Source: a virus. From it: a stretch of 64,000 nt of DNA. The stretch is from positions 18,611 to 82,610 of IMG/VR virus record IMGVR_UViG_3300036770_004568; one strand, written 5' to 3'. The stretch's first letter is position 1. Each line of letters opens with the position of its first letter. Below are positions 24,294 through 63,886 of this stretch, in pieces. The translations under genes and the position numbers were made by a program. The notes under the pieces are model-generated. The model searched no databases and was not told the origin of the DNA. It worked only from the letters and a program-made list of their open reading frames with translations.

Positions 24294-25058
24294 ATGACAC
24301 AACGTAGCCGCAGTTACCACGATCCCCTGGACCTCGGTCTTTATGATCGAACATCCATTCGCTACATCAAGGGTCGGATTGGTGCTGAGAACAAAGGGCA
24401 GACGGCATTTCGCTGTACCAATGACGGTGCTTCCAATGCTTTTCAGAACGTCTGGTTCAAGGTGACGATCACGGACCCCGGCTATCTCATCTTTCTCAAG
24501 GATGACAACAGGGATAAGCGATTTTATTCCGTCAATGTCTATACGGCTGATTCTGAGCGGCGTCAATTGGCCTACCCCATGCTCACCGGTGATGTCTGTA
24601 GGAAGTTCGATAACATGGTAGCTGGCTTCTCATCGGATCTCTACAACATCTCTGATCAACGCCCAGAGTTAAGGGACCGGAACCGCACATCCCTATTTCC
24701 CTTGCCCAAGGGTTCCTATGTCATCAACATCTCGACCCAGCGCTGGGACATGTTTCGTTATGGCGTCTACATGATTCTGGAGATGCCCACGCAGACCGGC
24801 TATCTGGAACTGGAAACTGAGACCAACAGCATGCGTGAGTTTGCTTTGCAAGAAGCCACAACCCAAAATGTTCCAAAGTTCTTCTTGCTTGAGGATGCTG
24901 TGGTGGGTGTTCTGCAGCCGGTGCGGGAGCGCAGTGACCATGACGAGCGGGAATTGCGTGGTGCTTGGCGCGAGTCGTTTAAGGATGTGCCTTTCCCGAA
25001 GGAGATTCAAGATTACATTCGTGCCACCCAAGTTCCCGCTTCAGCTTGTTTCAACTGA
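24294..25058 (+). CDS. Hypothetical protein, possibly secreted-domain-like beta protein
   Basis: The protein has 254 residues with no signal peptide or membrane helix. Alternating short hydrophobic segments (FKVTITDPGYLIFLKDD, GSYVINISTQRW, VYMILEMPTQTGYLELETET) suggest a beta-sandwich. The C-terminus is charged and helical. It has its own TAGAAT promoter and directly precedes the tRNA cluster. I recognise no family. A virion or adsorption role would be a guess. Confidence 0.6.
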   Translation: MTQRSRSYHDPLDLGLYDRTSIRYIKGRIGAENKGQTAFRCTNDGASNAFQNVWFKVTITDPGYLIFLKDDNRDKRFYSVNVYTADSERRQLAYPMLTGDVCRKFDNMVAGFSSDLYNISDQRPELRDRNRTSLFPLPKGSYVINISTQRWDMFRYGVYMILEMPTQTGYLELETETNSMREFALQEATTQNVPKFFLLEDAVVGVLQPVRERSDHDERELRGAWRESFKDVPFPKEIQDYIRATQVPASACFN

Positions 25059-59955: not shown

Positions 59956-60697
59956 TCAAGAAAGAACCCGGCCGTCCTTGACAAAGCTATACGCACAGGT
60001 GATGAAATCCTTATTCAGGCATTCAAAACCGGCGTAAAGTTGCCAGATGAGAATAATCGCCCTGCTGAAGTCGTCATTATTATTGATGAGGACTTGAGCG
60101 TTCGGACCACCGATACCCACACCAATTGCCTGAGGACCAAAGAAGTAACCTTGGGCAACTTCCTCAGCGACGGCAGAACCAGACTCAAGCTTAGCTTGAA
60201 CAGTTTTAGTCGGGTAGTTTGTTGATTCGAAGAATTTGACGCCCTCAAAGATCACGCCAGTAGGCATAACGGGTTCACCAGCCAGGAAATAAGCCTGACC
60301 AGCTTGAGGACCCATGTAGAATGAAGCGTTATTGGGCATTGCAGGGTTGCCCATATACATGCCCTGTCCAGGATTGCCAGCGTAGCGTGCAATCTCACGG
60401 AAGTCCGGATCCCTGCGGAGGTGCATCATGAAGGTGGGATCAACAATGGCCCGATACAGACCATCAGCATAAGTAGGCACATTGCGCTTACGCATCGACT
60501 TAACGATGTTCAGCAGGTCAGTGCGCACTTGGAATTGGTGCAGGCCAAGAGAAAAGGCAGCAGTTGCACCACCACTTCCGTAGTAGTCGAGGCTGGTCTC
60601 TTCTTTACCCATGGGGTAGTAGTAGCCACCTTGAGAATCGCCAGCAGGACCACGAGCGTGGGCTTTGGCTAGTTCATCAAGGAAAATACGATCCAAA
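59956..60697 (-). CDS. Major capsid protein, 3' exon (N4-gp56-like)
   Basis: This is the last and largest exon (742 nt). It encodes ~247 C-terminal residues starting LDRIFLDELAKAHARG. GATAAFSLGLHQFQVRTDL, PTFMMHLRRDPDFREIARY and GPNAQVLINNNDDFSRAIIL are typical of HK97-fold capsid proteins of the N4-gp56 kind. The five exons upstream at 60958-60974, 61194-61342, 62291-62463, 63556-63645 and about 63872-63886 complete the frame; the 5' end lies beyond the window. A simple ORF caller would wrongly start this exon at TTG 60696. Only the spliced product is a full capsid protein. Confidence 0.85.
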
Positions 60698-60957
60698 CAT
60701 GTTTCTCCAGGGCTTTTAACCCCTGGCTCTATAGCTTTACCATGGCTATAGTTCAGGCTATATCACGATCTAGATGGTCTAGATCCCCGGCACTCGTGGG
60801 AGAAGTGACTGACCGGACTGGTCTTGTCTCCTAGTCGTTGCACCTTCTAGTTAATTCCTTAACTAGCTTGGCTCAGGATTCCCCTTGGTTTGGCGGGGTT
60901 CCCTGAATTCACCGGGTTATTGCCCACTATTCACATAGTGGCGGCGCAATTGTATTT
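60698..60957 (-). ncRNA. Group I intron 6 of the capsid gene (no ORF)
   Basis: The intron is 260 nt. It has the P/Q pair GGTGAATTCAGGG...AATCCTGAGCCAAG, R-type GCAACGACTAGG and S-type GATATAGCCTGAAC. The 5' splice site follows GGCGT, which pairs with intron GCGCC through a U-G pair (P1). The 3' end G 60698 is chosen by reading frame. P10 pairing is short (TTG/CAA). Confidence 0.8.
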
Positions 60958-60974
60958 ACGCCAGCGGCGATAGT
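60958..60974 (-). CDS. Major capsid protein, 17-nt micro-exon
   Basis: ACTATCGCCGCTGGCGT encodes TIAAG plus two bases of Val. It is bounded by two independent group I introns. The left edge is supported by ACTAT pairing with intron 5 ATAGT (P10), the right edge by P1 of intron 6. The frame continues on both sides (LLD-TIAAGV-LDRIF). Confidence 0.75.
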
Positions 60975-61193
60975 CCGTGTATTCCGCTTAGGTTTCCCTA
61001 GGGACTGACTATATCTTCACCCTATGAATAGGGTGCAGGACGCTCATGCCTGTAATCAGGTAGTCGATGCACTGTCTAGAATCAGTGTTCTAGCTTAGCT
61101 CAGTGTTGCCATAGGTTTCGCCAAACCCTTAGGTTTCACTGAATTCATCCTGTTATTCACTAGACATTTACATGTCTAGGCGACAACTATTTT
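60975..61193 (-). ncRNA. Group I intron 5 of the capsid gene (no ORF)
   Basis: The intron is 219 nt. P element GATGAATTCAGTGAAACC, Q CACTGAGCTAAGC, R GCATCGACTACC and S GAAGATATAGTCAGTCC are present. P1 is exon CGAT with intron GTCG, ending in the conserved U-G pair. P10 is 3' exon ACTAT with intron ATAGT. Both splice sites are therefore well fixed. Confidence 0.88.
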
Positions 61194-61342
61194 ATCGAGC
61201 AGAGTGAGGCTACCGATGGACTGGTGAAACTGATTCAGGTTACCAGTATCGAGCAGCATCCGTTGCGCGGTGACTAGAGTCTCCCGAGCAATTTTGAAGC
61301 TTGAAGGCTGAGTCGGATCGGTCGGATCAGCAGGGCCGGTAT
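61194..61342 (-). CDS. Major capsid protein, exon of 149 nt
   Basis: The exon encodes (Y)TGPADPTDPTQPSSFKIARE to SIGSLTLLD. It starts at the second base of a Tyr codon and ends on a codon boundary. Its length (149 nt) fits the frame exactly at both junctions. Confidence 0.83.
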
Positions 61343-62290
61343 CAATTGTGTTATCCCAAGGGTGTTGATCCCTTGGCTCTATGGTTTTACCATTACCATA
61401 GTTCAGACTATATCATCACCCGTCCCAGGGGGATTGGGTGCGAGGCACTCGTGACGCAATTGTGATTTCTCTGTTTTTATTTGAGTTATACAATCTGATC
61501 ACGTCAGACACTTTTTCTGTCCGACTTAAATCAGTCTTGTATTTGAGAGAAGGAAGTACATACTCATCAATGGAAGACAAAAGCATTTTAAGCTGTTTAG
61601 TATTCCACTTTAAATAGAACTTACCTGTTTTATGACAAACTTTTGTGTAAGTGGATCCTGTTAAATCATGGATCCATGAACCAACAATATCAGTTGTTGG
61701 TTCATCTTCACAAACAGCCAACCATCCCACTCTTTCAATCTTTACTGAACCACTCGGCTTAATTCTTTTGCGAACTTCCAGTGAACCATCATCCATCCAA
61801 AATAGAGCAAGCTCTTTAAGACCAAGATTCTGAAGAACTTCGACGCTAAGAGTCTTTTTGCCTTGTGGATACAGCAGGTTGTAAATGGGGGTTAAAAATT
61901 TCTTACTTGTTACACCAAAGCGCACAGCAGGGTAAATACCTTTGTCTTTGAAGTATTTCAATTGTGCGTGTGTACCCAAGATACTGTTTAACTGCTCTAG
62001 TTGCCATTGAGCGTACTCAACATGAGCATACTGACGCTGGATGTGCAGAGTCGTTGATTCAGATCTTTTTGATTTGGAAATACAACCATCTCCGATGGCA
62101 CATCCAATAAGAAATTTTTGCTGTTCAATGTTTATCATAAAACCATCTAGCGTTAGTCGTTGAACCTTCCGTGTCCTTAAAACGGCTTGGCTGCTGATTC
62201 CCCAATAGGATAGCAAAAAATCCTCTGGAGGGGTTCCAGCAATTCACCTCGTTATCGACGCAGATTACGCTGCGAAGGAGCTACCAATTA
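61343..62290 (-). ncRNA. Group I intron 4 of the capsid gene, with LAGLIDADG gene
   Basis: The intron is 948 nt. P GGTGAATTGCTGG, Q AATCAGCAGCCAAGCC, R GGTTCAACGACTAACG and S GATGATATAGTCTGAAC are present. P1 is exon GAGT with intron GCTC (U-G at the site). P10 is exon TACC with intron GGTA. The sense-strand endonuclease gene is placed between R and S. Confidence 0.88.
61416..62138 (-). CDS. LAGLIDADG homing endonuclease in intron 4
   Basis: I take MINIEQQKFLIGCAIGDG at 62138 as the start; the longer frame reads the intron's own 5' core. The product is 240 residues. FLIGCAIGDGCI and LALFWMDDGSLEV are the two LAGLIDADG helices with their acidic residues (D9/D10 type). The C-terminus (SRVPRTQSPWDG) overlaps the intron 3' core. 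It has the same orientation as the capsid gene. It would cut intron-free alleles and spread the intron. Confidence 0.85.
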   Translation of the reverse strand: MINIEQQKFLIGCAIGDGCISKSKRSESTTLHIQRQYAHVEYAQWQLEQLNSILGTHAQLKYFKDKGIYPAVRFGVTSKKFLTPIYNLLYPQGKKTLSVEVLQNLGLKELALFWMDDGSLEVRKRIKPSGSVKIERVGWLAVCEDEPTTDIVGSWIHDLTGSTYTKVCHKTGKFYLKWNTKQLKMLLSSIDEYVLPSLKYKTDLSRTEKVSDVIRLYNSNKNREITIASRVPRTQSPWDG

Positions 62291-62463: not shown

Positions 62464-63555
62464 CTTGGTATTCCCGTCTGGCATTGATAAGCTGCTTAGA
62501 CGGTACTCACGGGTTTTCTATCCCCATGTCCAGACTATATCATATTCCCAGGACTGTTTCTGTTTCTCAAATCTTGCCTGATGAAGTTGAACACTACGCA
62601 TCAAGAATGTCGGACAAAGATGCGGCGATTGCTATTGGAATCTCTTATGTCTCTTTTTGGAAGTTAAGAAACAAATACAACATCAAATCTTTCTTTGAAA
62701 GAACAGGTCTCAGGAAGGACAAATCTACTGGAAAGCTTTTTCGTTTTTACCAATACAATGAGCGCTATTTCTCGTCAATTGATTCTACGGACAAAGCATA
62801 TTTCCTCGGACTACTAGCGTCTGATGGAAATATCTCCCCTCGTCTTACTGCTTGTCGGATTGCTCTTAAGCACTCAGACGCAGATATCCTTGATCACTTT
62901 AGGCTTTGCTTGGGAGCGGATTCTCCTCCCCTTAAGACTAAAGTGTCAAAAATCAATGGCGTTGAAAACGAGCCTCAAAAGGTATTGGTTCTAAGTCGAA
63001 CTTCTATGGTTAATGATCTAATCGAACTAGGGATAGTTCCAAATAAGTCAAAAACTCTAGAAATCAAATGTCCAAGCCTTAAAGACAATGAATTATGCAC
63101 TGCCTTTCTTCGAGGCGTTTGGGATGGAGACGGATCTATTACTCACCGACGTTTCAAAGTCGTTACTGCATCTGTTAAATTTGCATGTCAGCTCGACCAA
63201 ATGATTCATCAAGTGACTGGTATTCATTTGAAACCTTCTGTTCAACGTCCTAAATCAGGAAATCCGTTATTCGAATTCTCTGGTTATGTCAAAGATGCAG
63301 CTGTCCTGCATGCGCTATACAAAGATCCGTCACCAGCTCTTAAACGAAAGAAGCTTCAATACGAGTTGCACTGGGAATCTCGGCGCTAATTGTCCTCATC
63401 ATCTCATGGAGATGGTACGACATAGTCGTTGAACCTTCTATTGATCACTCAATAGCTTGGCTGCTGATTGCCCTAATCAAAATTCTGATGAGAGGGTTTC
63501 CAGCAATTCACCGAGTTTTCATTTCATGATTACTCATGAACGCGGCTGTCAATCA
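62464..63555 (-). ncRNA. Group I intron 3 of the capsid gene, with antisense endonuclease gene
   Basis: The intron is 1092 nt. P GGTGAATTGCTGG, Q AATCAGCAGCCAAGCT, R GTTCAACGACTATG and S GATATAGTCTGG are all on the minus strand. P1 is exon CGGT with intron GCCG (U-G at the site). P10 is exon TGTC with intron GACA. The inserted gene reads on the plus strand. Confidence 0.85.
62526..63389 (+). CDS. LAGLIDADG homing endonuclease, antisense to intron 3
   Basis: The product is ~287 residues. I start at ATG 62526 because the HTH-like DEVEHYASRMSDKDAAIAIG segment follows within frame; ATG 62607 is an alternative. The frame is open 5' to 62355, but that part is antisense to a capsid exon. The two LAGLIDADG motifs are YFLGLLASDGNI and FLRGVWDGDGSI, both with catalytic Asp. 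The first codons overlap the intron S element in antisense. Sense orientation is usual for intron genes, so this is atypical. Confidence 0.83.
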   Translation: MSRLYHIPRTVSVSQILPDEVEHYASRMSDKDAAIAIGISYVSFWKLRNKYNIKSFFERTGLRKDKSTGKLFRFYQYNERYFSSIDSTDKAYFLGLLASDGNISPRLTACRIALKHSDADILDHFRLCLGADSPPLKTKVSKINGVENEPQKVLVLSRTSMVNDLIELGIVPNKSKTLEIKCPSLKDNELCTAFLRGVWDGDGSITHRRFKVVTASVKFACQLDQMIHQVTGIHLKPSVQRPKSGNPLFEFSGYVKDAAVLHALYKDPSPALKRKKLQYELHWESRR

Positions 63556-63645
63556 ACCGGTTCCGTAGCCATTTCCGCGATGTACGCGGGGTGCTTTACT
63601 ACTACAGCTTTCACTGCCACTGACATCTTGCCATGTGTTTGTAGT
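63556..63645 (-). CDS. Major capsid protein, exon of 90 nt
   Basis: The exon encodes LQTHGKMSVAVKAVVVKHPA to AEMATEP(V). It starts with one base of a codon and ends with two bases of Val. The right edge is fixed by intron 3 P1 and P10. The left edge (63645) is less certain: it was chosen for frame, a preceding G and a 3-bp P10. Confidence 0.7.
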
Positions 63646-63871
63646 CTGGCTGTTGATTGGATTTGTGGTACCAATCAAACCCTGTACCTTCTCCGGTTTC
63701 ATGATAGAAACTACGGAGCCTACCGTCCAGGCTCTACACCTTCCCGTTGACGGGCTTGGCTCGGTATTCCCCACCTCTAGGGGTTCACCGAATTTGGCAG
63801 GTATTACCCTACGACTTTCATCGTAGGCGCCCCACTCGTGAATTGTCGTGAGAGGGATTGACAATTCAATT
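63646..63871 (-). ncRNA. Group I intron 2 of the capsid gene (no ORF)
   Basis: The intron is about 226 nt. P AAATTCGGTGAACCCC, Q GGGGAATACCGAGCCAAGCC and R GGTGTAGAGCCTGGACGG are clear. S is variant (GAAGGTACAGGG); its CAGG pairs with CCTG in R, so P7 is kept by compensatory changes. P2 is CCTACGA/TCGTAGG. P1 GCCTT/GGGGC uses two U-G pairs. Boundaries may shift by a few bases. Confidence 0.65.
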
Positions 63872-63886
63872 AAGGCCGGTATAGTT
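63872..63886 (-). CDS. Major capsid protein, possible 15-nt micro-exon
   Basis: AACTATACCGGCCTT would encode (x)TIPA(L) and join in frame to LQTHGKM. It lies between intron 2 and the 3' core of intron 1. The limits are inferred by frame only, because the intron 1 5' splice site is outside the window. Confidence 0.4.

What the first reader, a model, noticed from the sequence alone, without database searches (positions are those of the whole stretch)
60958..60974. 17-nt micro-exon between two group I introns
Intron 5 (219 nt) and intron 6 (260 nt) are independent, each with full P, Q, R and S elements. The 17 bases between them encode TIAAG and two bases of Val. The 3' exon ACTAT pairs with ATAGT of intron 5. 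GGCGT of the same exon pairs with GCGCC of intron 6. The exon must therefore serve as P10 partner for one ribozyme and P1 substrate for the next, which may force an order of splicing. Exons this small are known between group I introns in only a few genes.
Basis: partly seen in the sequence, partly recalled or inferred. Interest (0 to 1): 0.8.

Follow-up and report, generated by a model that had tools for sequence, protein, structure and literature searches.

The report
Tiny exon between two phage introns
A cyanophage's major capsid gene is cut into at least seven pieces by six self-splicing introns, and one piece is only 18 bases long; this is a striking pile-up of ordinary mobile introns, not a new mechanism.

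Summary
A very small exon between two independent group I introns is there, but its borders are wrong by 1 and 4 bases. The exon is 18 nt (60975-60958, minus strand), in frame, and encodes DYRRWR, not "TIAAG+Val". Intron 5 is 218 nt (61193-60976) and intron 6 is 264 nt (60957-60694).

The gene is the major head protein of a Synechococcus phage S-EIV1 relative. S-EIV1 has it uninterrupted, and splicing at the corrected sites gives a collinear protein (80% identity). Homologous introns sit at exactly the same sites in other phages: site 138|139 in L266, site 144|145 in L176-L179. They fix both borders and show compensatory base changes.

The gene carries six group I introns here (intron 1 only partly on the contig). 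Relatives use about 16 insertion sites, and one has a 23-nt exon.

The dual role is real: bases 1-6 pair with intron 5 (P10), bases 13-18 with intron 6 (P1). The segments do not overlap, so pairing forces no splicing order.

Best explanation: two mobile introns at recurrent sites 18 nt apart. Caveats: no RNA data; intron 6 alone has an A·C mismatch in P7. Tiny exons between group I introns are already known in mitochondria and reported once in a phage.

The parts
60958..60975 (-). Exon 6, 18 nt, GACTATCGCCGCTGGCGT = DYRRWR (residues 139-144 in S-EIV1 numbering)
   Evidence: Gapless alignment to uninterrupted S-EIV1 protein; same 3' and 5' splice junctions in homologous introns of L266 and L176-L179
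60970..60975 (-). GACTAT, P10 partner of intron 5
   Evidence: 6-bp pairing with ATAGTT of intron 5, contiguous with P1
60958..60963 (-). TGGCGT, P1 substrate of intron 6, ends in U for the U-G pair
   Evidence: 6-bp pairing with GCGCCG of intron 6
60976..61193 (-). Intron 5, group I, 218 nt, no ORF, site 138|139
   Evidence: Rfam 77.1 bits; homologue in L266 at the same site, 71% over 234 nt, E 2e-27
61181..61190 (-). Internal guide sequence of intron 5: ATAGTT (P10) then GTCG (P1)
   Evidence: rank 1 of 286
60694..60957 (-). Intron 6, group I, 264 nt, no ORF, site 144|145
   Evidence: Rfam 54.5 bits; homologues L176-L179 at the same site, 80-83% in the 5' core; covariation 16 of 65 pairs
60942..60950 (-). 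Internal guide sequence of intron 6: ATT (P10) then GCGCCG (P1)
60757..60757 (-). C in the S element of intron 6 (GATATAGCC), making an A-C mismatch in P7
   Evidence: Only case among 83 introns tabulated
59956..60693 (-). Exon 7 of the major head protein gene, with stop codon
   Evidence: phrog_1357 major head protein; 74% identity to S-EIV1
61194..61342 (-). Exon 5, 149 nt
61343..62290 (-). Intron 4, group I, with LAGLIDADG_2 ORF 61416-62216 in sense
   Evidence: Same site and homologous intron in L031/L058/L071; Pfam PF03161
62291..62463 (-). Exon 4, 173 nt
62464..63555 (-). Intron 3, group I
   Evidence: Rfam 49.2 bits; same site in L176, L284, L295
62526..63389 (+). LAGLIDADG ORF inside intron 3, antisense to the gene (from the first ATG inside the intron)
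   Evidence: PF14528, phrog_4645 E 7e-39
63556..63593 (-). Exon 3, 38 nt
   Evidence: Same 38-nt exon in L284
63594..63872 (-). Intron 2, 279 nt, divergent group I
   Evidence: Rfam 23.9 bits, E 0.01; same site 18|19 in L284
63873..63914 (-). Exon 2, 42 nt
   Evidence: Same 42-nt exon in L284
63915..64000 (-). 3' part of intron 1 (contig ends inside it)
   Evidence: Rfam 21.1 bits, cut at 5'; 84% to intron at the same site in L031

Best explanation
The window holds the major capsid gene of an S-EIV1-like cyanophage, interrupted by six group I introns. Introns 5 and 6 are two separate, ORF-less group I ribozymes. They stand at two insertion sites that intron-bearing relatives also use, 18 nt apart, so an 18-nt in-frame exon (DYRRWR) is left between them. 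Each intron removes itself by the usual two guanosine-dependent transesterifications. Intron 5 uses CTCGAT as 5' exon (P1 with GTCG) and GACTAT of the small exon as P10. Intron 6 uses TGGCGT at the other end of the small exon as P1 and the start of exon 7 (GAT) as P10. The two segments of the small exon do not overlap, so the introns can splice in either order; because intron 5 and its P10 partner are transcribed first, 5'-to-3' order is the default. The micro-exon arose because the conserved DNA around codons 138-145 offers several homing sites, and two happened to be occupied in one genome. Shown: gene identity, borders, core structure of both introns, conserved sites. Inferred: that both splice in the cell, the order, and homing as the cause.
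For: Uninterrupted homologue and gapless spliced alignment. Both introns match Rfam Intron_gpI over the whole model. Intron 5 homologue at the identical junction CTCGAT|..ACG|GACTAC in L266. Intron 6 homologues at the identical junction TGGCGT|..TTG|GATCG in L176-L179. Covariation in intron 6: 98.1% of cells paired, 16 pairs with changes on both sides, 0 of 500 shuffles as high. Intron 5 helices kept in L266 with changed letters. P1/P10 test. About 16 insertion sites in 167 loci, and every one of the window's six sites is shared with at least one other phage. Only one MCP copy in the record, so these exons must be joined to make a capsid protein.
Against: No RNA data exist, so splicing is inferred. 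Intron 6 carries an A-C mismatch in P7 that no other intron tabulated was seen to have, and its P10 is only 3 bp. The record is a metagenomic contig whose end lies inside intron 1, so a read or assembly error is possible and exon 1 is not seen. Intron 5 has only one same-site homologue.
Confidence: 0.88

Rival explanations
1. The whole stretch 61193-60694 is removed as one composite intron (5' site of intron 5 joined to 3' site of intron 6), skipping the 18 nt. The product stays in frame but lacks DYRRWR.
For: Exon skipping between group I introns is reported in phage Twort orf142 and in phage SIOphi. The 18-nt exon is a multiple of 3. The intron 5 guide can still form 3 bp with exon 7.
Against: The skip pairing is much weaker: -4.8 against -9.4 kcal/mol for intron 5 and -1.0 against -11.3 for intron 6. 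DYRRWR is invariant in relatives. Each intron occurs without the other at its site in other phages, so each must be removable alone.
Confidence: 0.05
2. Intron 6 is decaying and splices badly because of the A-C mismatch in P7, next to the pair that binds guanosine; the capsid gene is poorly expressed or rescued by another genome copy in the population.
For: Only intron seen with GATATAGCC among 83 tabulated; homologues at the same site have GATATAGTC. Intron 6 lacks the endonuclease ORF its homologues carry.
Against: Both P7 strands are otherwise intact, and all other helices pair in the window sequence with compensatory changes. Retaining the intron would stop translation within nine codons, so a working phage must remove it. 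An A-C pair can be tolerated (inference).
Confidence: 0.08
3. The exon forces an order of splicing, because it must serve both ribozymes.
For: It does serve both. The six-base linker between the pairing segments may not let two ribozyme cores dock at once (inference). The exon can form its own hairpin that competes with P1 of intron 6 (-4.4 kcal/mol).
Against: The pairing segments do not overlap, and both survive removal of either neighbour. The competing hairpin is much weaker than P1 of intron 6 (-8.5) and follows from codons also used in intron-free relatives such as L009.
Confidence: 0.07
4. The exon is 17 nt and encodes TIAAG plus two bases of Val, with introns of 219 and 260 nt.
For: The 17-nt borders give an open reading frame through both junctions, and part of the P1 and P10 pairing still forms.
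Against: Product does not match any relative; P1/P10 scores drop from 21 to 11 and from 19 to 14; homologous introns fix the junctions elsewhere.
Confidence: 0.01

Closest known systems
Placozoan mitochondrial cox1 single-base exon between two group IB introns (PMC5436844)
   Same: A tiny exon isolated by insertion of a second group I intron next to the first; each neighbour is an independent ribozyme.
   Different: Mitochondrial gene, 1 nt, confirmed by RNA sequencing; here a phage gene, 18 nt, no RNA data.
Bacillus phage phiNIT1 ribonucleotide reductase, small exon between two group I introns (PMC11878797)
   Same: Phage gene with a small exon between two group I introns.
   Different: Found by nanopore cDNA; size not stated in the text read; enzyme gene, fewer introns.
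Staphylococcus phage Twort orf142 (Landthaler and Shub 1999, read only through PMC11878797 and PMC3073962)
   Same: Several group I introns in one phage structural gene.
   Different: Three introns and observed exon skipping; here six introns, and skipping is disfavoured by pairing.
Mycobacteriophage LittleE capsid intron (PMC3706429)
   Same: Intron of probable group I type in a major capsid gene, with the endonuclease ORF on the opposite strand, as in intron 3 here.
   Different: One intron, HNH endonuclease, splicing shown.
Fungal mitochondrial cox1 genes with up to 18 introns (PMC2987802)
   Same: One conserved gene collecting many group I introns at recurrent sites.
   Different: Organelle, not a phage.

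Membership tests
Group I self-splicing intron (introns 5 and 6) | Conserved core with P3-P9, P7 formed by R and S elements | tested here: met
   Rfam full-length matches; helix check and covariation. Intron 6 has one P7 mismatch.
Group I self-splicing intron (introns 5 and 6) | 5' exon ends in U paired to G of the guide; intron ends in G | tested here: met
   GAT|AAA..ACG| and CGT|AAA..TTG|
Group I self-splicing intron (introns 5 and 6) | P1 and P10 formed by one continuous guide sequence | tested here: met
   Intron 5: 4 + 6 bp, rank 1 of 286; intron 6: 6 + 3 bp, rank 8 of 286
Group I self-splicing intron (introns 5 and 6) | Guanosine-dependent self-splicing | not testable with these tools
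   Needs in vitro transcription
Mobile (homing) group I intron | Encodes a homing endonuclease | tested here: not met
   Introns 5 and 6 have no ORF; homologues of intron 6 in L176-L179 carry an antisense ORF, so intron 6 is at most an ORF-less relative of a mobile intron
S-EIV1-like phage major head protein | Sequence similarity along the whole protein once introns are removed | tested here: met
   80% identity to S-EIV1; phrog_1357
Exon-skipping group I gene (Twort orf142 type) | Transcripts lacking an internal exon | not testable with these tools
   Pairing energies disfavour it

The most novel reading that the evidence does not exclude
In this phage group the capsid gene is kept split into many pieces, with exons as short as 18-23 nt, because staged removal of six ribozymes times or limits capsid synthesis late in infection; the micro-exon would then be part of an ordered splicing checkpoint rather than a by-product of homing.
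Probability: 0.05. Interest if true: 0.75.

Novelty: new member of a known kind. Interest (0 to 1): 0.45.

Why it matters
Six group I introns in one phage gene is twice the number in the phage genes described in the papers read here (three in Twort orf142 and in some Bastillevirinae genes), and it is the major capsid gene, whose product is needed in large amounts. The gene offers about 16 insertion sites in natural, closely related, intron-plus and intron-minus phages, so homing-site choice, intron loss and splicing of neighbouring introns can be compared directly. An 18-nt exon between two ribozymes also tests how close two group I splice sites can lie. It is a practical warning too: standard gene calling misses such exons.

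Tried and rejected
Searching viral contigs for exact starts of introns 5 and 6 gave only chance matches. A first pattern for the intron 5 3' junction gave no capsid locus; a looser pattern found L266. Bacterial genome contigs hold no relative of the capsid protein by the search used. Blastn of introns 5+6 against phage records gave only partial matches, some of them to annotated group I introns of other phages. A predicted structure of an intact relative's capsid protein failed (mean pLDDT 28.8), so nothing is claimed about where DYRRWR lies in the fold. The papers on S-EIV1 (2015) and Twort (1999) are not held. Hand-set junctions for L176 shifted two of its sites by 2-4 nt; these were merged with the neighbouring sites when counting about 16.

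Full report
Setting. The window is positions 18611-82610 of an 82,610-nt virus record, and the record ends where the window ends. The gene under study runs on the minus strand from the window's end down to 59956. Its last exon matches phrog_1357, major head protein, and among 50,697 phage records only Synechococcus phage S-EIV1 has a relative (72% identity). In S-EIV1 the gene is one uninterrupted ORF of 383 codons, and no group I intron is found in the surrounding 12.7 kb. This gives a reference for splice sites that does not depend on RNA folding.

Borders. Aligning the S-EIV1 protein to the window finds all pieces in order, including DYRRWR alone as a six-codon block. Choosing, at each gap, the junction that keeps the protein and has U before and G at the end of the intron gives one solution for introns 2, 4, 5 and 6; for intron 3, where three positions give the same product, the same rule picks one. 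The spliced product aligns to S-EIV1 without a gap at any junction (80% identity). The small exon is 60975-60958, 18 nt, GAC TAT CGC CGC TGG CGT. That shifts the frame and gives TIAAGV, one residue more than any relative. In relatives the six residues between LLD and DR were DYRRWR in all 160 matches found.

Independent confirmation from other phages. A DNA pattern for a group I intron 3' end followed by the start of exon 7 returned four contigs, and all four are capsid loci with an intron at codon 144|145. Their junctions are TGGCGT|...TTG|GATCG, exactly as corrected here, and LLD-DYRRWR is contiguous before them. Their introns are homologous to intron 6 (80-83% in the 5' core). A looser pattern for the other junction returned, besides chance matches, L266, a more distant capsid gene with four introns. 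One is at codon 138|139, homologous to intron 5 (71% over 234 nt, E 2e-27), with junctions CTCGAT|...ACG|GACTAC. Each of the two introns therefore exists without the other elsewhere.

Structure. Both introns match the Rfam group I model from end to end. For intron 6, an alignment with three distinct homologues (endonuclease insert left out) and a hand-drawn structure of 65 pairs gave 98.1% paired cells and 16 pairs with changes on both sides; no shuffle of 500 came near, and sliding the partners by one to three columns destroys the signal. For intron 5 and its L266 homologue, P2, P3, P4, P6a, P7 and P7.1 pair in both although letters differ; P8 pairs fully in the window, and the strings chosen by hand for P5, P9 and the L266 P8 were imperfect. 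One weakness: intron 6 reads GATATAGCC where 77 of 83 introns tabulated read GATATAGTC or GAGATAGTC; the remaining cases are divergent or missed by the text pattern. This makes an A-C mismatch in P7.

The dual role of the exon. With the corrected border, intron 5's guide reads ATAGTT-GTCG: GTCG pairs with CGAT of exon 5 (P1) and ATAGTT with GACTAT, the first six bases of the small exon (P10). This is the best of all 286 T-ending sites of the ORF for this guide. Intron 6's guide reads ATT-GCGCCG: GCGCCG pairs with TGGCGT, the last six bases of the small exon (P1), and ATT with GAT of exon 7 (P10); rank 8 of 286. Exon bases 1-6 and 13-18 are used, with six bases between, so the uses do not compete for the same bases. 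Removing either intron leaves the other's partners unchanged. No order is forced by pairing; a steric limit on both happening at once cannot be excluded. Exon skipping would be in frame but loses most of the pairing energy.

The wider picture. The window gene has six introns: 1 (partial), 2 (divergent, weak Rfam match), 3 (with an antisense LAGLIDADG ORF), 4 (with a sense LAGLIDADG ORF), 5 and 6 (no ORF). Spliced alignment of 167 loci gave 20 raw insertion positions, about 16 after merging near-identical ones. All six sites of the window recur in at least one other phage. L284 repeats the window's 42-nt and 38-nt exons 2 and 3. L309 has a 23-nt exon between introns at CDS positions 846 and 869. 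Sites 414, 418 and 432 crowd within 18 nt, so small exons are expected whenever two neighbours are occupied. The 18-nt case itself was seen only in the window. The searches were capped and pattern-based, so this is not proof of uniqueness.

How it works, most likely. Established knowledge of group I introns (two-step, guanosine-started splicing; P1 fixes the 5' site, P10 and the terminal G the 3' site) applies without change. What is shown here: gene, borders, folds and recurrence of the sites. What is inferred: that both introns splice, that 5'-to-3' order is the default during transcription, and that homing explains the sites. No RNA evidence could be obtained.

Comparison with what is known. 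A one-base exon between two group IB introns is established by RNA sequencing in placozoan cox1, and very small exons are reported in fungal mitochondria. In phages, a small exon between two group I introns was found by cDNA in phiNIT1, and exon skipping in SIOphi and Twort. A capsid intron with an opposite-strand endonuclease is known in LittleE. The window is therefore a new member of a known kind, remarkable for the number of introns and for the gene. Whether 18 nt is the shortest such exon in any phage could not be established.

Noticed in passing
window 62526-63389 (+); L176-L179 introns at codon 144|145: LAGLIDADG ORF antisense to the capsid gene inside intron 3 of the window; the intron 6 homologues also carry a long antisense ORF, while the ORF in intron 4 is in sense.
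   Followed up: partly
L176 near 6607, L179 near 9900, L177 (reverse complement) near 1410: The ORF-bearing homologues of intron 6 contain, at the border of the ORF insert, a 12-13 nt exact copy of the intron-free target spanning the insertion point (CCGTTGGCGTGAC); 0 of 1000 mononucleotide shuffles match it. This fits the idea that the endonuclease gene entered the intron through a sequence resembling its own target.
   Followed up: partly
L309:6684-6707: A second micro-exon, 23 nt (ACCGGCTTCCAGTTTGAGGGGGT), between two group I introns in a related phage's capsid gene.
   Followed up: partly
L008:13213-13454 (record G000), ORF L008:12226-12645: A group I intron (89 bits) splits what looks like a psbA gene, with an endonuclease VII-like ORF just upstream.
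   Followed up: no
L293, L309, L311, L325, L332, L333: A distinct intron site inside codon 140, only 4 nt from the window's intron 5 site.
   Followed up: partly
window 63594-63872 and L284 site 18|19: Intron 2 and its same-site counterpart have an unusual P7 region without the usual GATATAGTC motif; intron 2 scores weakly in Rfam.
   Followed up: no
window 24946-25042 (+): ARAGORN reports a tRNA-like gene with a four-base anticodon (aagg) next to tRNA-Pro and tRNA-Thr.
   Followed up: no
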